DNA from: Apricaphanius iberus
Taxonomy: Eukaryota > Chordata > Actinopteri > Cyprinodontiformes > Aphaniidae
Length of the DNA stretch: 64,000 bases
Direction: 5' to 3'
Assembly (NCBI GenBank): GCA_028564705.1
Contig: JAPXFQ010002673.1
Location: forward strand, 157,488 to 221,487
Each line of letters starts with the position of its first letter. The first letter of the stretch is position 1. The notes under the pieces are model-generated. The model made no database searches, was not told the origin of the DNA, and saw nothing but the letters and a program-made list of their open reading frames with translations. Below, one piece after another: positions 5,015 to 62,271 of the stretch. Both the position numbers and the translations under genes were made by a program.

Positions 5015-5175
5015 TCCCTATATGGCCAAAATTTCATATCCCAATAAAGGTAATTTTGTATCTGACATGTTCGGTTTTAAGACTCAGGTTCAGCACAACA
5101 GCAGGCAAAGGAATGCTTTCAAAGAAAAAAACAGATTTTATTAAAACCTAAAGTGTCGTCTCGGGAGGAACCAGG

Positions 5176-5505
5176 TGTCATGATCCGTCCCTGTCTGTGT
5201 TGTTTATTCCTCCTTGTTTCCTCCCAGTCTGTTTTAGTTACTTAGTCCTAGTTTGTTTCACCTGTTGTCTTATTAGTCCTCCCTGTGTTTTCTGCCTCTG
5301 CTCCCAGGTGTTCCACGTTTCCTGATTACCCTCCCCACAGTATATATACCCTTCTGTGTCTGTCTGTCCTCGTCGGGTCGTTGTCGTCGTTACCTCCCCT
5401 AGTTCTCTGTGCTTCTCGTCTTTTTTTGGACAATTAATAAACATGGGCCGTAAGAGCCACAAACGCCGCTCCGCATCTGGGTCCTCCTTGAGCCTAAACA
5501 TGACA
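5176..5505 (+). repeat. 5' LTR of element A
   Basis: Direct repeat of 330 bp, nearly identical to 9518-9847. It begins TGTCATG and ends CATGACA, a 7-bp inverted terminal repeat with the canonical TG...CA. It carries a TATA box at 5339-5348, an AATAAA signal at 5436-5441 and, unusually, the start codon of the internal ORF at 5443. The CCAGG just before it is the target duplication. Confidence 0.95.
5339..5348 (+). promoter_or_regulatory. TATA box of the element A LTR promoter
   Basis: GTATATATAC lies about 30 bp upstream of 5371-5372. A start there would make the RNA begin with the 10 bases that complement the primer binding site, as self-priming requires. The transcription start is inferred, not measured. 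The same box is in the 3' LTR. Confidence 0.7.
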
Positions 5506-8500
5506 GTACGACCCGACCAACTGGACCCAGCGGAGTACCAACACACTGACGATGAATGGAGGAGACTGATCAATTGGAGCGTAAGTCAAGGACTCTATTC
5601 AGACTCACCTTTTTGTGGATCGCGACTGGCACGCTGTCCGCCCGGTGTTGGGCCCCGCCGTCGTGAGGAAGGCGGCCTCTCCGCTCCTCGGGCCTCGAGT
5701 CATCGCCGCGCTTCTGGGCGTCCTCCTGGAAACGCAGTTGGTGTTTCCCCGTCGTTCCTCCTTGCGTCCATGTATGACGATTCAGAGGAGGACGACGACG
5801 GCTTCCCGGAGCTCTTCTCCGACTCCCTGGACGACGAGCTGGACTTTTGCGGCGGTGCCCGGGGTGCGCCGCCCTCGCCGCGGCTTTCTGCCTCCTGGGT
5901 TGACCGGTTGATCTCCCTGGCTCCTTCCGCCGATCTGCCACCCATCTGTGATCCCTCTGGGACTGGCCCTCTTCCTGCTTCCCGGCGACGAGGAGGGAGG
6001 CGTCGCCGAGCTGCTCCATCGGCTCCAGGAGGTTTCTTGCTTCCTTCTCGGAGTTGCAGCGCCTCGGCTCCTCCTGTCCCGCTTGGTGCTGCCTCCAGCT
6101 TCGGTGATTCGACCGCCGCTTCCTCCTGCCGCCCACGGCCGGTTTCGGGTCTGCCTCCTCATCCTCTCCAGCACAGCCAGGCGCCGGCGTTTCCTTCGGG
6201 TGGAGCCGAGTTGACCCAGGGTCGGTGGAACAGAGGGAAGAGTGCCGTAGGGAATGTTGAGCCCAGGTCCCCTGTGGAGACTGTTTTTGAGCGCTCTTCA
6301 GAGGCTCACCTGGAACCCCGGTTCCGAGTTCCCTCCGAGGGCGTCCAGACGGATGCGCCTCGGTTCCGAGTTCCCTCCGAGGGCGTCCAGACGGATGCGC
6401 CTCGGTTCCGAGTTCCCTCCGAGGGCGTCCAGACGGATGCGCCTCGGTTCCGAGTTCCCTCCGAGGGCGTCCAGACGGATGCGCCTCGGCTCCGAGATTC
6501 CTCCGAGGGTGTTCAGGAGAGCACGCCTCGGGTTCCTGATTCCTCCGAGGGTGTTCAGGAGAGCACGCCTCGGGTTCCTGATTCCTCCGAGGGTGTTCTG
6601 GAGAACACGCCTCGGGTTCCTGATTCCTCCGAGGGTGTTCTGGAGAGCACGCCTCGGGTTCCTGATTCCTCCGAGGGTGTTCTGGAGAGCACGCCTCGGG
6701 TTCCTGATTCCTCCGAGGGTGTTCTGGAAGCACGCCTCGGGTTCCTGATTCCTCCGAGGGTGTTCAGGAGAGCACGCCTCGGGTTCCTGATTCCTCCGAG
6801 GGTGTTCTGGAGAGCACGCCTCGGGTTCCTGATTCCTCCGAGGGTGTTCTGGAGAGCACGCCTCGGGTTCCTGATTCCTCCGAGGGTGTTCTGGAGAGCA
6901 CGCCTCGGGTTCCTGATTCCTCCGAGGGTGTTCTGGAGAACACGCCTCGGGTTCCTGATTCCTCCGAGGGTGTTCTGGAGAACACGCCTCGGGTTCCTGA
7001 TTCCTCCGAGGGTGTTCTGGAGAACACGCCTCGGGTTCCTGATTCCTCCGAGGGTGTTCTGGAGAACACGCCTCGGGTTCCTGATTCCTCCGAGGGTGTT
7101 CTGGAGAGCACGCCTCGGGTTCCTGATTCCTCCGAGGGTGTTCTGGAGAACACGCCTCGGGTTCCTGATTCCTCCGAGGGTGTTCTGGAGAGCACGCCTC
7201 GGGTTCCTGATTCCTCCGAGGGTGTCCTGGAGAGCACGCCTCTGGGTCCTGATTCCGCCGAGGGTGTTCAGGCGAACACGCCTCCGGTTCCTGACTCTCC
7301 CGAGGGTGTTCAGGCGAACACGCCTCCGGTTCCTGATTCCACCGAGGGTGTTCAGGCGAACACTCCTCCGGTTCCCGACTCCACCGAGGGTGTTCAGGCG
7401 AACACGCCTCCGGTTCCCGACTCCGCCGAGGGTGTTCAGGGGAACACGCCTCTGGTTCCCGACTCCGCCGAGGGTGTTCAGGGGAACACGCCTCTGGTTC
7501 CCGACTCCGCCGAGGGTGTTCAGGCGAACACGCCTCCGGTTCCCGACTCCTCCGAGGGTGTTCAGGAGAACACGCCTCCGGTTCCCGACTCCTCCGAGGG
7601 TGTTCAGGAGAACACGCCTCCGGTTCCCGACTCCTCCGAGGGTGTTCAGGCGAACACGCCTCCGGTTCCCGACTCCTCCGAGGGTGTTCAGGCGAACACG
7701 CCTCCGGTTCCTGACTCCTCCGAGGGTGTTCAGGAGAACACGCCTCCGGTTCCTGCCTCTTCCGAGGGTGTTCAGGAGAACACGCCTCCGGTTCCCGACT
7801 CCGCCGAGGGTGTTCAGGAGAACACGCCTCCGGTTCCCGACTCCGCCGAGGGTGTTCAGGAGAACACGCCTCCGGTTCCCGACTCCGCCGAGGGTGTTCA
7901 GGAGAACACGCCTCCGGTTCCCGACTCCGCCGAGGGTGTTCAGGAGAACACGCCTCCGGTTCCTGCCTCGTCCGAGGGTGTTCAGGAGAACACGCCTCCG
8001 GTTTCCGACTCCGCCGAGGGTGTTCAGGAGAACACGCCTCCGGTTCCTGCCTCTGCAGAGGGTGTTCAGGCGAACACGCCTCCGGTTCCTGCCTCTGCAG
8101 AGGGTGTTCAGGCGAACACGCCTCCGGTTCCTGACTCTGCCGAGGGTGTTCAGGCGAACACGCCTCCACCTAAGCTCAAGGTTCCACGCCGCCGGCCTCC
8201 AAGGCTCAAGGTTCCACGCCGCCGGCCTCCAAGGCTCAAGGTTCCACGCCGCCGGCCTCCAAGGCTCAAGGTTCCACGCCGCCGGCCTCCAAGGCTCAAG
8301 GTTCCACGCCGCCGGCCTCCAAGGCTCAAGGTTCCACGCCGCCGGCCTCCAAGGCTCAAGGTTCCACGCCGCCGGCCTCCAAGGCTCAAGGTTCCACGCC
8401 GCCGGCCCCCAAGGCTCAAGGTTCCACGCCGCCGGCCCCCAAGGCTCAAGGTTCCACGCCGCCGGCCCCCAAGGCTCAAGGTTCCACGCCGCCGGCCCCC

Positions 8501-9506
8501 AAGGCTCAAGGTTCCACGCCGCCGGCCCCCAAGGCTCAAGGTTCCACGCCGCCGGCCCCCAAGGCTCAAGGTTCCACGCCGCCGGCCTCCAAGGCTCAAG
8601 GTTCCACGCCGCCGGCCTCCAAGGCTCAAGGTTCCTCGTCGTCGGCCTCCTCGTCTGACGGTCCCTCGTCGTCGGCCTCCTCGTCTGACGGTCCCTCGTC
8701 GCCGGCCTCCTCGTCTGCTGGTTCCTCGTCGCCGGCCTCCTCGTCTGCTGTTTCCTCGTCGCCGGCCTCCTCGTCTGCTGTTTCCTCGTCGCCGGCCTCC
8801 TCGTCTGCTGTTTCCTCGTCGCCGGCCTCCTCGTCTGCTGTTTCCTCGTCGCCGGCCTCCTCGTCTGCTGTTTCCTCGTCGCCGGCCTCCTCGTCTGCTG
8901 TTTCCTCGTCGCCGGCCTCCTCGTCTGTTGGTTCCTCGTCGCCGGCCTCCTCGTCTGTTGGTTCCTCGTCGCCGGCCTCCTCGTCTGTTGGTTCCTCGTC
9001 GCCGGCCTCCTCGTCTGTTGGTTCCTCGTCGCCGGCCTCCTCGTCTGTTGGTTCCTCGCCGCCGGCCTCCTCGTCTGTTGGTTCCTCGTCGCCGGCCTCC
9101 TCGTCTGTTGGTTCCTCGTCGCCGGCCTCCTCGTCTGTTGGTTCCTCGTCGCCGGCCTCCTCGTCTGTTGGTTCCTCGTCGCCGGCCTCCTCGTCTGTTG
9201 GTTCCTCGTCGCCGGCCTCCTCGTCTGTTGGTTCCTCGTCGCCGGCCTCCTCGTCTGTTGGTTCCTCGTCGCCGGCCTCCTCGTCTGTTGGTTCCTCGTC
9301 GCCGGCCTCCTCGTCTGTTGGTTCCTCGTCGCCGGCCTCCTCGTCTGTTGGTTCCTCGTCGCCGGCCTCCTCGTCTGTTGGTCCCTCGCCGCCGGCCGCC
9401 ACGTCATGGGTCTTCTGGGGACTGTGGTTTTGTCCCTCCGTCCTGGACCCCCTCCTCCCGCCCTGGCTTGAGTTTCCTACTTGGTGCGCCAGGTGGCGCA
9501 CCTTGA
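5443..9506 (+). CDS. Element A protein: acidic and basic tandem-array polypeptide, one frameshift
   Basis: Coding region of about 1,354 codons from the ATG inside the 5' LTR to the TGA at 9504-9506, directly before the polypurine tract. It is continuous except for one 1-nt deletion near 6729. N-terminal part (about 290 residues): a basic start MGRKSHKRRS, then the motif GSRLARCPPGVGPRR (about residues 61-75), an acidic patch SEEDDDG and an Arg-rich stretch. Next come 44 copies of an acidic 14-mer (such as PPVPDSAEGVQENT), then 15 copies of PRRRPPRLKV and 25 of PRRRPPRLLV-like 10-mers, then a short unique tail. No CCHC knuckle, protease, RT or integrase is seen. Inference: a Gag substitute whose Arg-rich arrays bind nucleic acid. 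The long frames on the opposite strand are by-products of the repeats. Confidence 0.75.
5508..5517 (+). promoter_or_regulatory. Self-primer binding site of element A
   Basis: ACGACCCGAC begins 2 nt after the 5' LTR. It is the exact reverse complement of GTCGGGTCGT at 5372-5381 in the LTR, about 33 bp after the TATA box, where the transcript should begin. This is the arrangement of Tf1/sushi elements, which prime reverse transcription with the folded-back 5' end of their own RNA instead of a tRNA. No tRNA-complementary site was recognised. Confidence 0.8.
6316..8162 (+). repeat. Array 1: 44 in-frame 42-bp units
   Basis: The length is exactly 44 x 42 minus one base; the missing base is near 6729, where GGAGAGC reads GGAAGC. 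Each unit encodes a 14-residue acidic peptide, from PRFRVPSEGVQTDA in the first four copies to PRVPDSSEGVLEST and PPVPDSAEGVQENT later. Copies grade from one variant to the next, as in stepwise amplification by unequal exchange or template switching. No unit carries a stop in the coding frame. Confidence 0.95.
8184..8633 (+). repeat. Array 2: 15 in-frame 30-bp units
   Basis: Exactly 15 units of 30 bp, nearly identical. In the ancestral frame each unit reads PRRRPPRLKV. It is joined to array 1 by a seven-codon linker (PPPKLKV, 8163-8183) and runs directly into array 3, which encodes almost the same decapeptide with other codons. Confidence 0.95.
8634..9383 (+). repeat. Array 3: 25 in-frame 30-bp units
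   Basis: Exactly 25 units of 30 bp plus a partial 26th unit up to about 9404. In the ancestral frame they read PRRRPPRL followed by TV, LV or LF. Compared with array 2, codons for the shared residues differ at synonymous positions (for example CCA/CCT for Pro, AGG/CGT for Arg, CTC/CTG for Leu). Confidence 0.95.
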
Positions 9507-9514
9507 GGGGGGGG
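9505..9514 (+). promoter_or_regulatory. Polypurine tract of element A
   Basis: GAGGGGGGGG followed by TAT lies directly before the 3' LTR at 9518. This is the plus-strand primer site of LTR retrotransposons. The stop codon of the element ORF ends two bases into it. Confidence 0.85.
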
Positions 9515-9517
9515 TAT

Positions 9518-9847
9518 TGTCATGATCCGTCCCTGTCTGTGTTGTTTATTCCTCCTTGTTTCCTCCCAGTCTGTTTTAGTTACTTAGTCCTAGTTTGTTT
9601 CACCTGTTGTCTTATTAGTCCTCCCTGTGTTTTCTGCCTCTGCTCCCAGGTGTTCCACGTTTCCTAATTACCCTCCCCACAGTATATATACCCTTCTGTG
9701 TCTGTCTGTCCTCGTCGGGTCGTTGTCGTCGTTACCTCCCCTAGTTCTCTGTGCTTCTCGTCTTTTTTTGGACAATTAATAAACATGGGCCGTAAGAGCC
9801 ACAAACGCCGCTCCGCATCTGGGTCCTCCTTGAGCCCAAACATGACA
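9518..9847 (+). repeat. 3' LTR of element A
   Basis: 330 bp, nearly identical to the 5' LTR at 5176-5505, with the same TATA box, AATAAA and ATG. It is followed by CCAGG (9848-9852), which repeats the five bases before the 5' LTR. The ATG here opens only a 42-codon reading frame into flanking DNA. Confidence 0.95.
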
Positions 9848-9852
9848 CCAGG

Positions 9853-32626: not shown

Positions 32627-33652
32627 ACCATGCGCCAACATAAACCAAATAATCGAGACCATGAGCCAACGTAAACCAAATTATCACCGACCATGAGCCC
32701 ACGTAAACCAAACGATTGGCCACTGTGAGCCAATGTAAACCAAATGATCGCCGACCGTGAGCCAACGTAAACCGAAAGATCGCAGACCGTGAACCAACAT
32801 AAACCGAATGATCGCCAACCGTGAGCTAACTTAAACCAAATGATCGACCACTGTGAGCCAACGTAAACTAAATGATCACCGACCATTAGCCAACACGAAC
32901 CAACTGATCGGCCACCGTGAGCCAACGTAAACCAAATGATCGGCCACCGTGAGCAAACGTAAACCAAATGATTGCCGACCATTAGCCAACGTAAACCAAA
33001 TGATCGCCCACCGTGAGCCAACATAAACCAAATGATCGCTGACCATGAGCCAACGTAAACCAAATGATCACCGACCATGAGCCAACGTAAACCAAATGAT
33101 TGGACACTGTGAGTCAACGTAAACCAAATGATCGCCGACCATGAGCCAACGTAAACCGAAAGATCGCCGACTGTGAACCAACATAAACCAAATGATCACC
33201 CACCGTGAGCTACCGTAACCCAAATGATCGCCCACTGTGAGCAAACGTAAACTAAATGATCGCCCACTGTGACCCAACGTAAACTAAATGTTCACCGGCC
33301 ATGAGCCAACGCGAACCAACTGATCGGCCACCGTGAGCCAAAGTAAACCAAATGATCACCCACCGTGAACCAACGTAAACCAAATGATCGCCCACCGTGA
33401 GCTAACGTACACCAAATGATCGCCCGCTGTGAGCCCATGTATATCAAATGATCGCTGACCACGAGCCAACGTAAACCAAATGATCTGCCACCGTGAGCCA
33501 ATGTAAACTGAATGAACGGCATACATGAACCAACTTAAACCGAATGATCACTGACCATGAGCCAACGTAAACCAAATGATCGGCCAATGGAGCCAACGTA
33601 AACCAAATGATCGGCCAACGTGAGCCAACGTAAACTAAATGATCGCCGACCA
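32627..33652. repeat. 32-bp minisatellite, about 32 copies
   Basis: Tandem repeat with consensus around CCGTGAGCCAACGTAAACCAAATGATCGGCCA (period 32). Copies are 80-97% alike by eye, with alternation of ACCGTGAG and ACCATGAG and of CGGCC, CGCC and CGCCGA. No spacers, so not a CRISPR array. Because 3 x 32 is 96, the reverse strand stays open for long stretches in several frames, giving Trp/His/Leu-rich spurious ORFs. It directly abuts the 5' end of the L2 at 28790-32590. Confidence 0.95.
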
Positions 33653-42384: not shown

Positions 42385-42990
42385 GAGGCATGGAGCCGAG
42401 AAAGTCTCATAATAAATAAACTAAAGCAGGGTTTTTCATGGATGCATATGCTCATTCGAAAATACACATGGTCTGTTTCACAAATGCAAACGCCGAGGTT
42501 CACAAATATAATTTTCAGAGACACTTGTAATATAAATTCACAAATGCACACAATCTGTTTCAAAAACGCACACAATCTGTTTCACAAACGCACACAATCT
42601 GTTTCACAAACGCACACAATCTGTTTCACAAACGCACACGATCTTTTTCACAAACGCAAACGATGTTTCAAAAATGCAAACAATCTTTTTCAGAAATGCA
42701 CACAAGCTGTTTCGCAAATATAATTTTGAAAAAAGCTTCAAATATAGCCAGCTGTTCGCTTTCACCCAATGGTATGGCTCCTAACATGTTCCATCCTCAG
42801 TGTGGGCCGAACATACGGACCCCAGCAATAATTAGAAATTACTTATCCATTGCCTCAGATTATTAAACAGTGGGCATGAATTACTAACCCGTTTCCTCGG
42901 TTTATTAAACTGTGCGCATGGACTCGCAATCTATTCCTCCGGTTTAATAAACCGTGTGATGTTCTGTTTACTTGATAAAAAGCCCTGACT
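42385..42990. repeat. Left arm of a long inverted repeat
   Basis: Pairs with 44864-45412 in inverted orientation: ATGGAGCC...AAGTCTCATAATAAATAAACTAA at the outer ends, and GATAAAAAGCCCTGAC against GTCAGAGCTTTTTATC at the inner ends. The arm contains about eight copies of a 22-bp repeat, CACACAATCTGTTTCACAAACG (about 42535-42720), which is shorter in the right arm. It also holds repeated GGTTTATTAAACCG-like palindromes. It appears to be a foldback-type element with arms of about 600 bp. Confidence 0.75.
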
Positions 42991-43010
42991 GCCGGTAATG
43001 TTTGTGTTGT

Positions 43011-43130: not shown

Positions 43131-43349
43131 GCTACAGAAGAAGCTAGCAGCCAGGGTCCTTTATAAAGTAGACAGAACAATATATGACATCCACAACATC
43201 TAAGTATGTCAGTGTTTTTTGCACTTTGCCAAAAAGAAAATTTTTCTGGTTTTAAAAATTCAAACTCAGGTTTTTAGGCGGTGTGGACAAAAATATTATT
43301 TGACGCCGTGGAGGAAAAACAAAAAAACAAAAAGAGAAGTCGAGATGGA

Positions 43350-44597
43350 GTCCCCTTGTAGGAGCTGAGTCGGGTGGGGGACCCGGATGGCGTCCTCTCA
43401 CGGGACGGGCATCGGGCGGTCAACCCGGATGGCGTCCTCTCACGGGACGTAAGACTTGCGGACATCCCCTTACGGGACGTGAGTCGGGTGGACGGCCCGA
43501 ATGGCGTCCTCTGGCTGGGGGAAGGACTGGCGGACGTCCCCTTACGGGACTTGAGTCGGGCGGACAGCCCGACGGTCGTCTCCTGGGGACATGAAGGTCC
43601 AGCGTGAAGCTGGACGGACGTCCCTCGGCGGGATTGGAGGCTGGCGGACGGCCCAGGGGCCCTCTCCTGGGAACCTGGAGGTCCAGCGGGAAGCTGAACG
43701 GACGTCCCTTGGCGAGACAGGCGGACGGCCCGGCGGTTCTCTACTGCGGACAAGGTAGCAGGAAGCTTGGCTGGTCGTCGGCGGAGAGAGAGGGACCTGG
43801 TTGGTTCCCACTGACGGGAACGAAGGAACCTGGCCAGTGAAGCTGGGCCTGAGACTGGCTGCTCCGGCGGCGGCAGTAGCCAATCCAGCAGCTCTGGTGG
43901 CGAATCCAATAGCTCTGGCGGCGGCAAATCCAGCAGCTCTGGCGAAGGACGCGGCAGATCCAGCAGCTCTGGCGGAGGCAGCGGCAAATCCAGCAGCTCT
44001 GGCGGAGGCTGCGGCAAATCCAGCAGCTCTGTTGGCTCTGGGAGTAGAGACTGGAGGAGCTCTGCTGGCTCTGGGAGTAGAGACTGGAGGAGCTCTGCTG
44101 GCTCTGGGAGCAGAGACTGGAGGAGCTCTGCTGGCTCTGGGAGCAGAGACTGGAGGAGCTGCTCTGCTGGCTCTGAGAGCAGAGACTGGAGGAGCTCTGC
44201 TGGATCTGGGAGCAGAGACTGGAGGAGCTCAGCTGGCTCTGGAAACAGATACTGGAGGGGCTCTGCTGGTTCTGGCTGAAGCAGACAGAAACTTCGGGGC
44301 CGAACAGACTGAAGCAGACGCCAACGTCTGGACCGAATGTTCGTGGATGCGGATTTCCTCCCCAAAAAGGGACAACTCCTCCTCGGCTGTCTGAATGAGG
44401 ACATCCACCTTGTCCTCCAGGTCCAGCGCGTCATGAGAAGTGAGCAGAGAGAAGAAGCGGGGAAGAGTCTTCACCATAAAGCTGCGGTCTGGCGAGCTGA
44501 GGCTTCAAAGCCGCAGATGTCATCCAGGTTGGACCAGAGGTCTTGCAGGAGGTCAGGGTCCGACGCTTCTGCTGGGTCCATTTTTTCGGGCTGGATC
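43350..44597 (-). pseudogene. Element B coding region (broken)
   Basis: Starts at the ATG of AATGATCCAG inside the primer binding site (MIQPEKMDPAEASDPDLLQDLW). A frameshift near 44477 moves the reading into the frame with LPRFFSLLTSHDALDLEDK and AEEELSLFGEE. These align with the N-terminal domain of D (LPRFRSSLNPLDAEELEE, AEEELP). Then comes LASASVCSAPK, also shared with C and D. Further frameshifts separate the acidic LLQSLLPEPAE array from the Arg-rich part at 43883-43542. No Gag zinc knuckle or pol domain. Non-functional. Confidence 0.65.
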
Positions 44598-44601
44598 ATT
44601 C

Positions 44602-44863
44602 TGTTACGTCGCTTTTGCTGTAAGGAGGCTAAAGGACCCAGGCGCAGAAGCTGAGTTCCAGGTAAGGTGGTATTTTATTAGTGAGATGCAACACAAGGTG
44701 AGACGATACATACAAAGGTACGACAATGATCCAGCGAGGACTGAAGCGCTCGCTGGATCTTAAATAAGGGGAGACAAGGAGGAACAGGTGCAAACAATAG
44801 GAAGTGAGGAGGTTCAGACAGGATGACACAGGTGCAGATGATGAGGGAGTGAGAATCCTGACA
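44602..44863 (-). repeat. 5' LTR of element B
   Basis: 262 bp, reverse strand: begins TGTCAGGATTCTCACTCCC (44863) and ends CGTAACA (44602). TATTTAAG (about 44758-44766) serves as TATA-like box. GCTGGATCATT at 44725-44735 lies about 30 bp downstream of it and complements the primer site at 44590-44600 (AATGATCCAGC). Related along its length to the LTRs of C and D. Confidence 0.8.
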
Positions 44864-45412
44864 GTCAGAGCTTTTTATCAACCAAACAGAACACTACATG
44901 GTCACACGGTTTATTAAACCGGGTGAATAGGTTCCGAGTCCGTGCGCACAGTTTATTAAACCGAGGAAACGGGTTAGTAATTCATGCACACTGTTTAATA
45001 AACTGAGGAAATTGATTAGTAATTACTAATTATTGCCAGGGTCCACACGTTCGGCCCACAATGAGGATGGAACATGTTAGGAGCCATACCATTGGGTGAA
45101 AGAGAACAGCTGTCTAAGTGATTAATTTGATTGACAGGTTCCTTAGCCAATGGTGACATTAGTTGTCCGCATTTGGAAAAAGATTGTTTGCATTTGTGAA
45201 ACGGATTGTGTGCGTTTGTGAAACAGATCGTGTGCATTTGTGAACCATTTCGTGAATTTATATTACAAATGTTTCTGAAAATTGTATTTGTGAACCTCAG
45301 CGTTTGCATTTGTGAAACAGACCATGTGCATTTCCGAATGAGCATATGCTTTCGTGAAAAACCCTTCGTTAGTTTATTTATTATGAGACTTTCAAGGCTC
45401 CATATAGAGGTC
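44864..45412. repeat. Right arm of a long inverted repeat
   Basis: Inverted partner of 42385-42990. It begins directly at the outer end of the LTR of element B, so B inserted at the inner edge of this arm. It carries the GGTTTATTAAACCG motifs and a shorter 22-bp repeat tract. The reverse strand is open for 149 codons (45465-45016), but the peptide is the same repeat-derived sequence as in the left arm and is not taken as a gene. Confidence 0.75.
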
Positions 45413-46580: not shown

Positions 46581-46769
46581 ACATCCCTAATAATAATTTA
46601 CACAATTTCTGGAAGCTGAAAACATCCCAGTTGTTGCATGGCCAGCACACTCACCAGACATGTCACCCATTGAGCATATTTGGGATGCTCTGGATTAGCG
46701 TATAGGACAGTGTGTTCTAGCCATTGAAGAAAGAATGTACCAACATTCTAGGCCACAAGCAAACTTGGA

Positions 46770-48294
46770 GCCGAGGAGCAGGTTTGGGAACCTTGAGGAG
46801 GTGCAGCGGCGGCTGAGAAACAGCGGCTGAGGACCGGTGCAGCGGCGGCTGAGAAACGGCGGCTGAGAAGTGGCGGCTGAGGACCGGTGCAGCGGCGGCT
46901 GAGAAGCGGCGGATGAGAAGCGGCGGATGAGAAGCGCCGGCTGAGGACTGGTGCAGCGGCGGCTGAGAAGCGGCGGCTGAGAAGCGGCGGCTGACGACTG
47001 GTGAAGCGGCGGCTGAGAAGCGGCGGCTGAGGACAAGTGCAGCGGCGCATCCAGCAGCTCTGGCGGAGGCAGCAGCAAATCCAGATGCTCTGGGATCAGA
47101 GACTGAAGGGGCTCTGCTGGCTCTGGGGGCAGAGACTGGAAGAATGAGAAGGAGAGGGCTGAACAGGCTGATGCAGACGCAAACATCGGTGCCGAACAGG
47201 CTGATGCAGACGCTAACTTCGAGGTTAAGCAGACTGGAGCAGATGCCATCTTCACGGTCAAGCAGGCTAAAGCAGACGACCTGGGCGGAGCCAGTGCACA
47301 GCTCGGAGCGGGGAGAACCAGCGATGAGCTGACTGATATTGCTCCTCCACGTGGCGGCGCTGTCTGTGGTGAGACAGTGAGGGTGCAGCGTCTGTCAGCG
47401 GAGGATTGCTCACGGCTGTAGCCCCCATGCTGGCTGTCGGTGCGGGAGCTGTGTTCTGCTCCCCGATTCCAGAAACAGCCCTAGCACGGTGGGACTTCCG
47501 CCTATGGCTGGGAGGTGAAGACTGAGAGGGTGGACGGACAACCTCCTCCCAGGCCTCCTGGTAAACCCGCTTAAGCTTGGTTTATGCTTGCCGCATGAAC
47601 ATTCCGCGCGGAAACGAGACGTCCAGAACCGGGCGAGACGCCTTCGAGCAGCGTTTATACTTTTTGCGGCTTGTCCCTGCTGACAGCCAATATTCTTGAA
47701 GACTGCAGGAGGCGGCGTAGGGCTCTACGGCATGCATACAACACAACCATAGTAGAAGTAGTAATCACTGTTGTTTACAAGATGGTGATACCCGTGAGCT
47801 TAAACAAAGCAGAACTTTTATCCTGTTTAGCTAGGAAAAAAGACGAAAAAGGAGACTGTCCACTCATCCATTAAAACACAAGTTGATCAGAGTGATCTCT
47901 AGCAGCCAAATCATAAAGAGTCTTTTTACGAACCTCCGGCAATATGAGCACTTGCCCGTCCACCATGTTTTTCCGCGCGGGACTGTCCGCGTAGGTACAA
48001 ATTTTCCTAGGTGCGCGGTGTGATTCTTAATTTGGCCGCGTGGAGCCATACGGACCTTGCGGACGCGGCAAGCATAAACCAAGCTTTAGCCTCGCTCCGC
48101 AGCGCGGCAAAGTCCTGGGCGGAGAACACCCTCCAAAAATGAGGAAGCACCTTTAGGATCTCCTCAGATCCGGAGATTCGCAGAGGCGCGTGAGGAGAGG
48201 CGGAGATCCTGGACAGATTAGCCCAGACGTCCTTCTGCAGAGCGGGGATCTCCTGGGTGACAGCCTCCGCTGGGTCCATCTTTTCGGACTGGAT
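46770..48294 (-). pseudogene. Element C coding region (broken)
   Basis: N-terminal domain: MIQSEKMDPAEAVTQ, DVWANLSRISASPHAPLRI, ILKVLPHFWRVFSAQDFAALR (48294-48086), alignable with D and B. A 512-bp MITE then interrupts it. After the MITE come remnants around 47560-47280 and the frame at 47261-46760 with LASASACSAPM, PEPAEPLQSLIPEHLD and PPPELLDAPL. That is followed by a Ser/Arg/Pro-rich array (LLSRRF, AAAAPVLSRR). The last residues of that frame come from the Tc1 flank. Non-functional. Confidence 0.6.
47574..48085. mobile_element. Harbinger-type MITE, TTA target duplication
   Basis: 512-bp element with inverted ends AGCTTGGTTTATGCTTGCCGC and GCGGCAAGCATAAACCAAGCT (21 bp, perfect), flanked by TTA on both sides (47571-47573 and 48086-48088). 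It has GC-rich sub-terminal sequence. No transposase; open frames inside are short. The 3-bp TTA duplication fits PIF/Harbinger. It inserted into the coding domain of element C. Confidence 0.88.
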
Positions 48295-48299
48295 CATTC

Positions 48300-48535
48300 T
48301 GTCACGCTCATGCTGCATGGAGGACGAAGGACCCAGGCGCAGAAGCAGAGTTCCAGTTGAGGTGATGATTTATTGAGTGCAGCAAACATAAGGTGAGACA
48401 ATACACACAACAGGTATGACATATACGACAATTATCCAGCCAGGAATAAAGCGCTCGCTGGATCTTAAATAGGGGGAGACAAGGAGGAACAGGTGAAAAC
48501 ATAAGGAAGTGAACACAGATGCAAACGATAGGAGG
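48300..48535 (-). repeat. 5' LTR of element C, inner part
   Basis: Reverse strand. It ends GCGTGACA at 48300 and is TATA-equipped (CTATTTAAG, about 48464-48472). CTGGATAATT at 48430-48439 matches the primer site 48289-48298 with one mismatch. Compared with B's LTR it lacks the first about 70 bp; these lie at 51324-51396 on the far side of element D. Confidence 0.75.
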
Positions 48536-48803
48536 TGTCATGCCTCACTCCCCACTCACACTCCTTTATTATTTGCACCTGTGTTATCCTGAACCTCCAG
48601 GGCTCTGCCCCTGATTATTCATTGTTTCCACCTGTTCCTCCTTGGTTCTCCCCTCATTTAAGATCCAGCGAGGCCTTCTATCTTGGCTGGATCATTGATT
48701 GTGTCGTGCCTTTTGTTGCTGCACCTCATTAAAACCACCTCACCTGAGTTCTGCTTCTGCGTCTGGTTCCTTCGTCTCCCACACTGCAGCACAATCCCTG
48801 ACA
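48536..48803 (+). repeat. 5' LTR of element D
   Basis: 268 bp from TGTCATGCC to CCCTGACA. A TATA-like ATTTAAG at 48656-48662, predicted RNA start near 48685, ATTAAA near 48728 as polyadenylation signal. Related to the LTRs of B and C (shared GTTCCTCCTTG, ATTTAAGATCCAGCGAG, CTGGATCATTG and TTCTGCTTCTGCG blocks). Confidence 0.8.
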
Positions 48804-48804
48804 G

Positions 48805-48816
48805 AATGATCCAGCC
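48805..48816 (+). promoter_or_regulatory. Self-primer binding site of element D, containing the start codon
   Basis: AATGATCCAGCC starts 1 nt after the LTR and is the exact reverse complement of GGCTGGATCATT at 48685-48696, which lies about 29 bp after the TATA-like box. The ORF start ATG (48806-48808) is inside the site. Elements B (44590-44600) and C (48289-48298) have the same arrangement. Confidence 0.8.
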
Positions 48817-49676
48817 AAGAAGGAGGGACCCAGCAGAAGCCTCCGACCCCGACATCCTGGAGTCCCTCTGGTGTAGGCTGGAGAAGGTCTCTGGCTTCGC
48901 CAGCCCGTCCGCTCGCCTCACCGCGCTGGAGGACTACATCCTAGACCTCCTTCCTCGGTTCCGCTCCAGCCTCAACCCGCTCGATGCGGAGGAGTTGGAG
49001 GAGGCAGCCGACGACGCCTTCCTTGCTGCGGAGGAGGAGCTGCCTCCTGCAGGGACACAGCCCGCCTCTACCAACGTCGGCTCGGTCTCCTGGTTCCATG
49101 CGCCTCCGATCCTCTCACCGGCTGTCTTCGCCCCTTTCCCGACCGCTTCACGGAGGGCTCCGGTCAATCGCCCAGCTGCTGCTACCACAACACCGTCTTC
49201 GGCTGCGGCAGGACGGGGTCCCCTCTACGTTAGCGAGGATGAACTGTTCGAGTTTTTTCATGGGGACAGACTCGAGTACCTCTGCTCCAGAGGGGATCCA
49301 GCTCCTCGCCGCGATCGGCGACACAGACGCAGCAAGGCTGCGCCGGAGTACCCTCCCTCGGACGGGTCGGACTGGGAGGACACGGAGGAGCATTATCTGG
49401 AGCAGCAGACCTCGCTCGTCGGCTCTCGGCTTGCCTACTGCGCTCCTGGAACAGGCCCACGTAGGCATGAGCCTCCATGTCAGCCACGCAGCCGAGGGCA
49501 CGAGGCACCTCTACCATCTCGCCGCAGACGGCGGCGCCGACGGGAAGTAGTTGCTTCCGGGTCCCCGGAGTTGGCGTCTGCATCGCACTGCTCGGCCCCG
49601 AAGTTGGCGTCTGCATCGCCCTATTCCTCCTTCTCCCTTCTCCAGTCTCTGTTCCCAGAGCACCTGCAGTCTCGGC

Positions 49677-49850
49677 CTCCTGAGCTGCCGGATATGCCGC
49701 TGCCGCCTCCTGAGCTGCCGGATATGCCGCTGCCGCCTCCTGAGCTGCCGGATATGCCGCTGCGCCGCCTCCTGACCTGCCGGATATGCCGCTGCCGCCT
49801 CCTGAGCTGCCGGATATGCCGCTGCCGCCTCCTGAGCTGCTGCTGCATCG
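49677..49850 (+). repeat. Element D array 1: 30-bp units
   Basis: About six copies of a 30-bp unit (CTGCCGGATATGCCGCTGCC and following) encoding PELPDMPLPP, an acidic Pro-rich decapeptide. One unit has two extra bases (GCTGCGCCGCC, near 49762), which shifts the frame. Confidence 0.85.
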
Positions 49851-50700
49851 CCTGCCGGCTCCCACGCCGGCTCTTCGCCACCTGGCTCCCAAGCCGGCTC
49901 CTCGCCGCCAGGCTCCCAAGCCGGCTCCTCGCCGCCAGCTCCCACGCCGGCTCCTCGCCTCCAGGCTCCCACGCCTGCGCCTCGCCTCCAGGCTCCAACG
50001 CCTGCGCCTCGCCTCCAGGCTCCCACGCCTGCGCCTCGCCCCCAGGCTCCCACGCCCGCTCCTCACCGCCAGGGTCCCACGCCGGCTCTTCGCCGCCTGG
50101 CTCCCAAGCCGGCTCCTCGCCGCCAGGCTCCCAAGCCGGCTCCTCGCCGCCAGGCTCCCACGCCGGCTCCTCACTTCCAGGCTCCCAAGCCTGCGCCTGG
50201 CTCCCAAGCCGGCTCCTCGCCGCCAGGCTCCCTCGCCGGCTCCTCGCCGCCAGGCTCCAACGCCGGCTCCTCGCCTCCAGGCTCCCACGCCTGCGCCTCG
50301 CCTCCAGGCTCCCAGCCTGCGCCTCGCCTCCAGGCTCCCACGCCGGCTCCTCGCCGCCAGGCTCCCACGCCGGCTCCTCGCCGCCAGGCTCCCACGCCGG
50401 CTCCTCGCCGCCAGGCTCCCACGCCGGCTCCTCGCCGCCAGGCTCCCACGCCGGCTCCTCGCCTCCAGGCTCCCACGCCGGCTCCTCGCTTCCAGGCTCC
50501 CAAGCCTGCGCCTCGCCGCCAGGCTCCCTCGCCGGCTCCTCGCCGCCAGGCTCCAACGCCTGCGCCTCGCCTCCAGGCGCCTGCGCCTCGCCTCCGGGCT
50601 CCTGCACCTCGCCCCCAGGCTCCAAAGCCTGCGCCTTGCCGCCAGGCTCCAACGCCTGCGCCTCGCCTCCAGGCTCCCAAGCCTGCGCCTCGCCTACGGG
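49851..50700 (+). repeat. Element D array 2: 27-bp units
   Basis: Roughly 30 degenerate copies of a 27-bp unit (CGCCGCCAGGCTCCCACGCC and following) with occasional indels. In the inferred ancestral frame it encodes APTPAPRRQ-like basic nonapeptides. The other frames read Ser/Gly-rich or Leu/Arg-rich and are open because no stops occur in the unit. Confidence 0.85.
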
Positions 50701-50878
50701 TCCCCAGGAGAGGACCGCCGGGCCGTGCGCCCGCCTCTCGTCCCGTCAAGGGACGTCCGTCCAGCCCCCAGCTGGACCTCCCGGTCCCCAGGAGAGGACC
50801 GCCGGGCCGTCCGCCCGTCTCACGTCCCGCCAGGGGATGTCCACCCGTCTCACGTCCCGCCAGGGGACGTCCGCCCGT

Positions 50879-51310
50879 CTCACGTCCCGCAGGGGGAAGC
50901 CCGTCGGTCCTTCGTCCGACCAGAGGTCGCCATTCGGGCCGTCCGCCCGACTCACGTCCCGCAAGGGGACGCCCGCCGGTCCTTCGTCCGACCAGAGGTC
51001 GCCATTCGGGCCGTCCGCCCGACTCACGTCCCGCAAGGGGACGCCCGTCGGTCCTTCGTCCGACCAGAGGTCGCCATTCGGGCCGTCCGCCCGACTCACG
51101 TCCCGCAAGGGGACGCCCGTCGGTCCTTCGTCCGACCAGAGGTCGCCATTCGGGCCGTCCGCCCGACTCACGTCCCGCAAGGGGACGCCCGCCGGTCCTT
51201 CGTCCGACCAGAGGTCGCCATTCGGGCCGTCCGCCCGACTCACGTCCCGCAAGGGGACGCCCGCCGGTCCTTCGTCCGACCAGAGGTCGCCATTCGGGCC
51301 GTCCGCCCGA
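50879..51310 (+). repeat. Element D array 3: six 72-bp units
   Basis: Exactly six units of 72 bp starting CTCACGTCCCGCAAGGGGAC, plus a partial seventh to 51323. Copies 2-6 differ at only a few bases (GCCGG or GTCGG), so amplification is recent. Each unit encodes 24 residues. Confidence 0.95.
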
Positions 51311-51323
51311 CTCACGTCCCGCT

Positions 51324-51396
51324 GGAGGGCGTCAACACAGACACGTGGGTGGAGATGATGATGAGGGAGTGACAGGAGCTGAGTGTAATCATGACA
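51324..51396 (-). repeat. 5' LTR of element C, outer part
   Basis: Reverse strand from 51396: TGTCATGATTACACTCAGC, then CACTCCCTCATCATCATC. This matches the first about 70 bp of B's LTR (TGTCAGGATTCTCACTCCCTCATCATC) that are lacking at 48535. It therefore completes C's LTR, with element D between the two parts. Confidence 0.65.
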
Positions 51397-61018: not shown

Positions 61019-61314
61019 CTATACATTGCTAATGTGGTAAATGACTATTCAGCTGCAAATGTCTGGTTTTTGGTGCAATATCTACATAGGTGTATAGAGG
61101 CCCATTTCCAGCAACTATCACTCCAGTGTTCTAATGGTACAATGTGTTTGCTCATTGGCTCAGAAGGCTAATTGATGATTAGAAAACCCTTGTGCAATCA
61201 TGTTCACACATCTGAAAACAGTTTAGCTCGGTACAGAAGCTACAAAACTGACCTTCCTTTGAGCAGATTGAGTTTCTGGAGCATCACATTTGTGGGGTCA
61301 ATTAAACGCTCAAA

Positions 61315-62271
61315 ATGGCCAGAAAAAGAGAACTTTCATCTGAAACTCGACAGTCTATTCTTGTTCTTAGAAATGAAGGCTATTCCATGCGAGAAATTGC
61401 TAAGAAATTGAAGATTTCCTACAACGGTGTGTACTACTCCCTTCAGAGGACAGCACAAACAGGCTCTAACCAGAGTAGAAAAAGAAGTGGGAGGCCGCGT
61501 TGCACAACTGAGCAAGAAGATAAGTACATTAGAGTCTCTAGTTTGAGAAACAGACGCCTCACAGGTCCCCAACTGGCATCTTCATTAAATAGTACCCGCA
61601 AAACACCAGTGTCAACATCTACAGTGAAGAGGCGGCTGCGGGATTCTGGGCTTCAGGGCAGAGTGGCAAAGAAAAAGCCATATCTGAGACTGGCCAATAA
61701 AAGAAAAAGATTAAGATGGGCAAAAGAACACAGACATTGGACAGAGGAAGACTGGAAAAAAGTGCTGTGGACGGATGAATCCAAGTTTGAGGTGTTTGGA
61801 TCACAAAGAAGAACGTTTGTGAGACGCAGAACAACTGAAAAGATGCTGGAAGAATGCCTGACGCCATCTGTTAAGCATGGTGGAGGTAATGTGATGGTCT
61901 GGGGTTGCTTTGGTGCTGGTAAGGTGGGAGATTTGTACAGGGTAAAAGGGATTCTGAATAAGGAAGGCTATCACTCCATTTTGCAACGCCATGCCATACC
62001 CAGTGGACAGCGCTTGATTGGAGCCAATTTCATCCTACAACAGGACAATGACCCAAAACACACCTCGAAATTGTGCAAGAACTATTTAGAGAAGAAGCAG
62101 GCAGCTGGTATTCTATCGGTAATGGAGTGGCCAGCGCAGTCACCAGATTTGAACCCCGTTGAGCTGTTTTGGGAGCAGCTTGACCGTATGGTATGCAAGA
62201 AGTGCCCATCCAACCAATCCAAATTGTGGGAGCTGCTTCTAGAAGCGTGGGGTGCAATTTCTCCAGATTAA
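61315..62271 (+). CDS. Tc1-type DD38E transposase, C-terminus lost by a 17-nt insertion
   Basis: 318 residues from the ATG of AAAATGGCCAGAAAAAGAG. N-terminal paired-like helix-turn-helix region (1-110) with GYSMREIAKKLKIS and a GRPR motif (59-62). Catalytic triad: D154 (LWTDESKF), D244 (QQDNDPKH), E283 (LNPVELFWEQL); 38 residues lie between the last two. The frame ends after WGAISPD at TAA 62269-62271. There, 17 extra bases (rich in CCACCA) separate the gene from a continuation in another frame (LTARMPKVCNAVIAANGGFF..., to 62371) that looks like the normal last 30 or so residues. The catalytic core is otherwise undamaged, but activity without the normal end is doubtful. Confidence 0.9.
   Translation: MARKRELSSETRQSILVLRNEGYSMREIAKKLKISYNGVYYSLQRTAQTGSNQSRKRSGRPRCTTEQEDKYIRVSSLRNRRLTGPQLASSLNSTRKTPVSTSTVKRRLRDSGLQGRVAKKKPYLRLANKRKRLRWAKEHRHWTEEDWKKVLWTDESKFEVFGSQRRTFVRRRTTEKMLEECLTPSVKHGGGNVMVWGCFGAGKVGDLYRVKGILNKEGYHSILQRHAIPSGQRLIGANFILQQDNDPKHTSKLCKNYLEKKQAAGILSVMEWPAQSPDLNPVELFWEQLDRMVCKKCPSNQSKLWELLLEAWGAISPD

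What the first reader, a model, noticed from the sequence alone, without database searches (positions are those of the whole stretch)
5176..9847. An LTR retrotransposon whose body is an acidic tandem array followed by a basic tandem array
Element A has every structural mark of a complete, recent LTR insertion but no pol. Its coding region holds exactly 44 acidic 14-mers (about -2 to -3 charge each) and then 15 + 25 Arg-rich 10-mers (PRRRPPRL..). All unit lengths are multiples of three. Element D keeps the same order (acidic PELPDMPLPP repeats, then basic APTPAPRRQ and 24-residue Arg-rich repeats), and B shows it in degraded form. A repeated acidic-then-basic layout in separate elements suggests a functional polypeptide that may replace Gag: the basic part could bind RNA and the acidic part could drive self-association. 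TR-GAG elements of plants are the nearest known idea, but those keep a normal gag.
Basis: partly seen in the sequence, partly recalled or inferred. Interest (0 to 1): 0.87.

Follow-up and report, generated by a model that had tools for sequence, protein, structure and literature searches.

The report
Retrotransposon family with charged-repeat protein gene
A jumping-gene family that copied itself recently in this genome shows none of the usual retrotransposon genes but carries one long gene for a protein with a run of acidic repeats followed by a run of arginine-rich repeats, and part of that gene bears the marks of a working protein rather than of random DNA stutter.

Summary
The element is real and belongs to a recently active family. 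The window copy has LTRs 328/330 identical, a 5-bp target duplication, a self-primer, a G8 purine tract, 44 units of 42 nt and then 41 of 30 nt, and no Pfam gag or pol match. The host assembly gave 40 scored matches at 96-100%; I read 20 of the other 39. All 20 carry the 42-nt array and 19 of 20 the Arg-rich array after it; 18 of 20 are complete, 17 of those with exact 5-bp duplications. One frame, from an ATG in the LTR to a stop 11 nt before the 3' LTR, is open end to end in 7 of 18 complete copies; the window copy is frame-broken (unit 10 is 41 nt). The N-terminal part lacks stops in that frame in 21 of 21 copies, and variants shared between copies are enriched for silent changes there (24:21 against 8:37 in other frames). 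So: a non-autonomous Tf1/sushi-like LTR element with its own selected protein and no recognisable Gag. The protein's role (cis RNA binding is my favourite) is inferred; Gag replacement and the helper element were not shown.

The parts
5171..5175 (+). target site duplication CCAGG, left
5176..5505 (+). 5' LTR; TGTCATGA ... AACATGACA
5372..5381 (+). self-primer GTCGGGTCGT, expected at or near the 5' end of the transcript; complementary to 5508-5517
   Evidence: 28 of 20000 shuffled LTRs give 10 nt or more; 10-11 nt in 18 of the 20 fetched copies, 7 nt in the other two. Transcript start itself inferred
5436..5441 (+). AATAAA polyadenylation signal
5443..5445 (+). ATG inside the LTR, first ATG downstream of the inferred transcript start, start of the ORF
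   Evidence: also the first ATG in the 7 copies checked
5508..5517 (+). primer binding site ACGACCCGAC, self-priming type
5443..6336 (+). N-terminal part of the ORF, 298 codons, no Pfam match; selection shown for 5506-6336
6337..8183 (+). 44 units of the 42-nt acidic repeat (unit 10 is 41 nt; the last unit grades into the basic array)
8180..9409 (+). 30-nt Arg-rich repeats (PRRRPPRL), 15 + 25 + 1 variant unit
9410..9506 (+). C-terminal tail of the ORF and stop TGA 9504-9506
9483..9502 (+). perfect 9-bp inverted repeat GGTGCGCCA-GG-TGGCGCACC just upstream of the purine tract, also in the 7 copies printed
9507..9517 (+). G8 polypurine tract plus TAT before the 3' LTR
9518..9847 (+). 3' LTR
9848..9852 (+). 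target site duplication CCAGG, right
48536..51358 (+). element D: 5' LTR, 16-nt self-primer, conserved N-terminal domain (MIQPRRRDPAEASDPD...), acidic PELPDMPLPP repeats, basic 27-nt and 72-nt repeats; no 3' LTR found
43274..44862 (-). element B: 5' LTR, 11-nt self-primer, same N-terminal domain in two frames, acidic then basic repeats; no 3' LTR found
46720..48536 (-). element C: 5' LTR, same N-terminal domain (48297 down to 48088), interrupted, degraded repeats; no exact self-primer of 8 nt or more reported

Best explanation
A recently active, non-autonomous Ty3/gypsy-type LTR retrotransposon of the self-primed Tf1/sushi kind whose only gene is one ORF filling the space from the LTR to the purine tract. 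The ORF encodes about 300 N-terminal residues, a variable run of acidic 14-mers and a variable run of PRRRPPRL-type 10-mers. Shown: LTRs, duplications, self-primer, family-wide architecture, open frame, purifying selection on the N-terminal part, conservation of the Arg-rich unit. Inferred: a sushi-type helper supplies Gag and Pol in trans; the protein favours the element's own RNA, the arginine-rich part binding RNA and the acidic low-complexity part balancing or recruiting it; repeat number changes easily by slippage or strand transfer during reverse transcription. I hold the shown part at about 0.9 and the RNA-binding role at about 0.35.
For: 20 of 20 fetched copies carry the 42-nt array, 19 of 20 the 30-nt array after it (L009 has a 27-unit acidic array but no basic motif and no second LTR in the stretch held). 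18 of 20 have two full LTRs, 94.98-100% identical (two pairs 100%), 17 of 18 with exact 5-bp duplications, at flanks without similarity to one another. ATG-to-stop frame ending 11 nt before the 3' LTR in 7 of 18. N-terminal part: no stop in the ORF frame in 21 of 21, 3-17 in the other two forward frames. In the 12 copies with 831 nt, variants shared by 2 or more copies are 24 silent:21 changing in the ORF frame against 8:37 and 8:37 (p = 0.0008, treating variants as independent, which linked lineages are not); variants seen once are 24:42, 22:44, 18:48. dN below dS in 7 of the 9 pairs I chose (0.021/0.113, 0.036/0.109, 0.21/0.49 among them). Arg-rich unit: residues 1-8 kept at 98.6% or more in 425 units while most positions use several codons. 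Self-priming is described for the Tf1/sushi group (PMC6317226, passages) and the LTR ends fit the sushi integrase motif TGTYANR...CNTNACA (PMC3601003 table 3).
Against: The helper was not found. 11 of 18 complete copies do not keep the frame, many through 1-nt length changes in the arrays, which may be assembly errors or real decay. The acidic array shows no clear silent-change excess in the acidic frame: 9:30 in the window; 37:103 pooled against a null of 0.222, 28 of 300. Other frames of that array score better: one forward frame 6 of 400 in the window, another forward frame 2 of 300 and a reverse frame 0 of 300 pooled. For the basic array the silent-change test is strong or weak depending on parse and null: 1 of 400, 66 and 3 of 5000, 1 of 300 with a parse that favours the motif, 91 and 43 of 1000 with the neutral parse. 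The comparison of shared with single variants in the ORF frame is only p = 0.08. One pair, L011/L015, has dN = dS. No transcript or protein evidence was available.
Confidence: 0.6

Rival explanations
1. The ORF is kept open so that the element RNA is translated (for example to escape decay of long untranslated RNAs), and the exact protein matters little; the charged arrays are a by-product of GC-rich minisatellites.
For: In the 42-nt array four of six frames lack stops; the acidic array shows no clear amino-acid constraint in the acidic frame; repeat numbers vary from 10 to 60 (42-nt units) and from 4 to 41 (30-nt motif) among copies that have them.
Against: Silent-change excess in the N-terminal part only in the ORF frame; PRRRPPRL kept while codons vary; the acidic segment is net negative in 6 of the 7 open copies and the basic segment has no acidic residue in 7 of 7.
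Confidence: 0.2
2. The protein has taken over Gag's job (particle formation or RNA packaging), so the element needs only Pol from outside.
For: The ORF sits where gag would sit, right after the primer site; it is under selection although the element has no recognisable pol; B, C and D share a short N-terminal domain with an AlphaFold model of three helices, mean pLDDT 80.
Against: No Pfam gag match, no fold match at E <= 0.001 in PDB or viral models; the model rests on 4 rows and the five models vary from 45 to 80; a protein of 510-1256 residues in the 7 open copies is an odd shell protein.
Confidence: 0.12
3. Ordinary large non-coding derivative (LARD-like) with embedded minisatellites of the kind known in plant Ogre/Tat elements.
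For: Tandem arrays inside LTR elements are well known (PMC7004042, passages; PMC3305785, abstract and discussion) and no known protein domain was found above its curated cut-off.
Against: The arrays lie inside an ORF with frame-specific selection upstream of them, not in a 3' untranslated region; unit spacing is 42 or 30 nt in most intervals.
Confidence: 0.06

Closest known systems
Tf1/sushi group (V-clade chromoviruses) of Ty3/gypsy LTR retrotransposons
   Same: Self-primer, LTR end motif, AATAAA 69 nt from the LTR end and T-rich LTR (the last two compared by description only).
   Different: No gag, pol or chromodomain match in the element; its one ORF matches no known domain.
TR-GAG elements of plants
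   Same: Non-autonomous LTR element with a single ORF (PMC8704663 and PMC10025401, passages).
   Different: TR-GAG keeps a Gag; here no Gag domain is detectable and most of the protein is acidic and arginine-rich repeats.
LARD / TRIM non-autonomous LTR elements
   Same: Two LTRs, primer site and purine tract without pol.
   Different: Those are non-coding as I recall the definitions; this family has an ORF under selection.
Ogre/Tat (for example Gmr9/GmOgre of soybean)
   Same: Polymorphic embedded minisatellites, up to 149 repeats per locus in soybean (PMC3305785, abstract and discussion; PMC7004042, passages).
   Different: There the arrays lie between the coding region and the 3' LTR; here they are the coding region.

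Membership tests
Tf1/sushi group | self-priming by complementarity of the transcript 5' end to the primer site | tested here: met
   10 nt in the window copy; 10-11 nt in 18 of 20 fetched copies, 7 nt in two; 11 and 16 nt in B and D, none of 8 nt or more reported for C; the transcript start is inferred
Tf1/sushi group | LTR end motif TGTYANR...CNTNACA | tested here: met
   TGTCATGA...AACATGACA against PMC3601003 table 3
Tf1/sushi group | Pol of the Tf1/sushi branch with chromodomain | tested here: not met
   no Pfam pol domain in the stretches of the window copy tested; at most a non-autonomous relative, not a full member; the helper search did not complete
TR-GAG | single ORF encoding Gag | tested here: not met
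   single ORF present but no Gag match
LARD | large internal region without coding function | tested here: not met
   frame-specific selection; definition recalled
Ogre/Tat minisatellite carriers | arrays in a 3' untranslated region of a gag-pol element | tested here: not met
   arrays lie between ATG and stop of the ORF
Non-autonomous LTR retrotransposon | two LTRs, primer site, purine tract, target duplication, no pol | tested here: met

The most novel reading that the evidence does not exclude
Probability: 0.2. Interest if true: 0.85.

Novelty: new variant of a known kind. Interest (0 to 1): 0.62.

Why it matters
Non-autonomous LTR elements are usually thought to be passive RNAs that borrow all proteins. 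A family without recognisable pol that keeps a protein under purifying selection implies that this protein helps the RNA that encodes it. It would make cis-preference in LTR elements testable and offer a natural series of acidic/basic repeat proteins of differing length for work on RNA condensation.

Tried and rejected
Chance minisatellite: rejected because the arrays are found in all 20 copies read and mostly in register with the ORF. RNA structure as the selected feature: two 300-nt stretches fold no better than shuffles (z 0.38 and -0.60). Homologues elsewhere: none at E <= 0.01 in the protein collection for the A N-terminus, the D N-terminus or the first 250 residues of the D ORF (16 and 41 scored only the best of too many candidates), none in viral contigs or genome contigs; these collections are mainly of viruses and prokaryotes, so this says little. 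Pfam Extensin_1 and Galaxin_repeat matches fall below the curated cut-offs and reflect low-complexity sequence. A-D homology in the GSRLA-C-PG-GPRR stretch is only suggestive: 1 of 500 shuffles scored as high. D 27-nt Arg frame: 9 silent:12 changing, 59 of 1000 simulations as high. B-D Arg-rich 72-nt region, eight overlapping alignments, simulations as high in the Arg frame: 121, 64, 15, 6, 5, 48, 40 and 186 of 300, so weak. Ten paper searches were answered (two of them held no paper); none of the titles and abstract openings listed, at most 20 per search, describes such an element. Repbase and Dfam were not searchable. PMC10886601 (passages): vertebrate Helenus elements use tRNA primers, so they are not this.
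Full report
What is there. The element at 5176-9847 has LTRs of 330 nt with two differences, a 5-bp duplication CCAGG, a G8 purine tract directly before the 3' LTR and a primer site that pairs over 10 nt with the LTR (5372-5381 against 5508-5517); a match to tRNAs was not tested. Shuffled LTRs reach 10 nt in 28 of 20000 cases. Self-priming is stated to have been described in the Tf1/sushi group from yeast and vertebrates (PMC6317226, passages), and the LTR ends fit the sushi motif in PMC3601003 (passages and section 12). The internal region has 44 units of 42 nt and 41 of 30 nt, the last a variant. No Pfam gag or pol match appears in the 11 stretches tested.

The copy in the window does not read as one protein. 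The frame that opens at the ATG in the LTR (5443) carries the N-terminal part and units 1-9; unit 10 is 41 nt long, and units 11-44 and the whole Arg-rich array lie in another frame, which ends in TGA at 9504-9506, next to the purine tract.

The family. After twelve unanswered attempts the host assembly was searched once: 1.195 Gb in 1979 contigs, 1303 first-look candidates for the LTR plus 95 nt of leader, 40 scored, all 40 at 96-100% over the full query. 18 of 20 have two full LTRs; 17 of these 18 have exact 5-bp duplications; LTR pairs are 94.98-100% identical, two pairs 100%. Upstream flanks of 150 nt share no similarity with each other at E <= 1e-5, so these are separate insertions. All 20 have the 42-nt array; 19 of 20 have the 30-nt array after it, the exception being L009, in which no second LTR was found either. 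Unit numbers run from 10 to 60 for the 42-nt unit and from 4 to 41 for the 30-nt motif, window copy included. Internal lengths of the 18 are 1.5-4.5 kb, too short for gag-pol plus arrays; the copies themselves were not run against Pfam.

The gene. In 7 of 18 complete copies the ATG frame runs to a stop 11 nt before the 3' LTR, 510-1256 residues; in some of the seven, stretches of the arrays are read in another frame between compensating length changes. In six of the seven the acidic part is net negative; in the seventh it is net positive because of such frame changes. The basic part has no acidic residue in any of the seven. The frame of the last acidic unit equals that of the first basic unit in 18 of 20 copies that have both arrays, window copy included; in one of these only a single basic motif shares it. 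The N-terminal part has lengths of 822, 831 (12 copies), 834, 873, 1071 and 1113 nt, all multiples of three, except one copy of 1070 nt; it has no stop in the ORF frame in 21 of 21 copies and 3-17 stops in the other two forward frames.

Selection. Among the 12 copies with an N-terminal part of exactly 831 nt (the other nine were left out of this count), variants shared by two or more copies are 24 silent to 21 changing in the ORF frame, and 8:37 in each of the other frames (p = 0.0008 if variants were independent; lineages link them). Variants seen in one copy only show little bias (24:42, 22:44, 18:48), as expected for changes after insertion; the direct comparison of shared with single variants in the ORF frame is weaker (p = 0.08). 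With all 21 copies, in an alignment that includes the divergent longer type, the shared counts are 85:132 against 53:164 and 56:161. Of nine pairs that I chose, which are not independent, dN is below dS in seven, equal in L011/L015, and L013/window has no silent change at all. In the Arg-rich array, 425 units (23 of 448 intervals dropped) keep PRRRPPRL at 98.6% or more at each position, with one to eight codons seen per position; the search anchor fixes position 4 and two bases of position 5. The formal silent-change test for that array ranges from strong to marginal with parse and null: 1 of 400, 66 and 3 of 5000, 91 and 43 of 1000. The acidic array gives no clear signal in the acidic frame, and other frames of it score better.

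A second lineage. B, C and D, in the same window, have other LTRs (B/C 81%, B/D and C/D about 71%), exact self-primers in B and D (11 and 16 nt; none of 8 nt or more was reported for C) and a shared N-terminal domain beginning MIQ, with DPAEA a few residues on. dN is below dS in all four comparisons (0.38/1.16, 0.49/2.25, 0.62/0.89, 0.31/2.33), and the silent excess is specific to the coding frame among forward frames (27, 2 and 1 of 500; 38 of 500 for C/D; one reverse frame also scores well in two comparisons, 7 and 8 of 500). D has acidic then basic repeats and B the same in degraded form. The domain models as three helices (mean pLDDT 80, but 45-80 across models) without a convincing structural match. 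None of B, C and D has a detectable 3' LTR, so whether they are non-autonomous by design is open.

How it may work. Shown: a recently mobile, self-primer-bearing LTR family without recognisable pol and with one ORF, part of it under selection. Inferred: transcription from near 5372, first-ATG translation, packaging and reverse transcription by a sushi-type helper. Most likely role of the protein, about one in three in my view: a cis-acting RNA binder in which the arginine repeats hold the element RNA and the acidic repeats tune solubility or recruit the complex. That a pol-less element keeps a protein at all argues for action on its own RNA; otherwise copies with a broken gene should do as well. 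The array length is probably free to vary by slippage or strand transfer, as proposed for plant elements with embedded repeats (PMC7004042, passages; PMC3305785, discussion).

Verdict. Gag replacement remains a guess.

Noticed in passing
L009, L010, L011, L015, L018: A second N-terminal type, 1070-1113 nt instead of 831, differs in its middle by several insertions (72% amino-acid identity over the shared part for L013/L011); two gene versions are mobile in one genome.
   Followed up: partly
window 42390-42991 and 44862-45403: Inverted repeats of roughly 600 nt flank element B, whose LTR abuts one arm; B may be cargo of, or nested in, a palindromic DNA element.
   Followed up: no
window 48530-48540: The LTRs of elements C (minus) and D (plus) start almost back to back.
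   Followed up: no
window 5581: A strong splice-donor-like GTAAGT lies in the ORF just after the DPAE stretch, with acceptor-like sites downstream.
   Followed up: no
window 32627-33651: A separate 32-nt minisatellite of about 32 copies, not inside elements A to D.
   Followed up: no
window 61306-62271: Long open frame that looks like a Tc1/mariner transposase (by eye, no search).
   Followed up: no
L009 and L022: The acidic array is reported with a 126-nt higher-order unit, three 42-mers.
   Followed up: no
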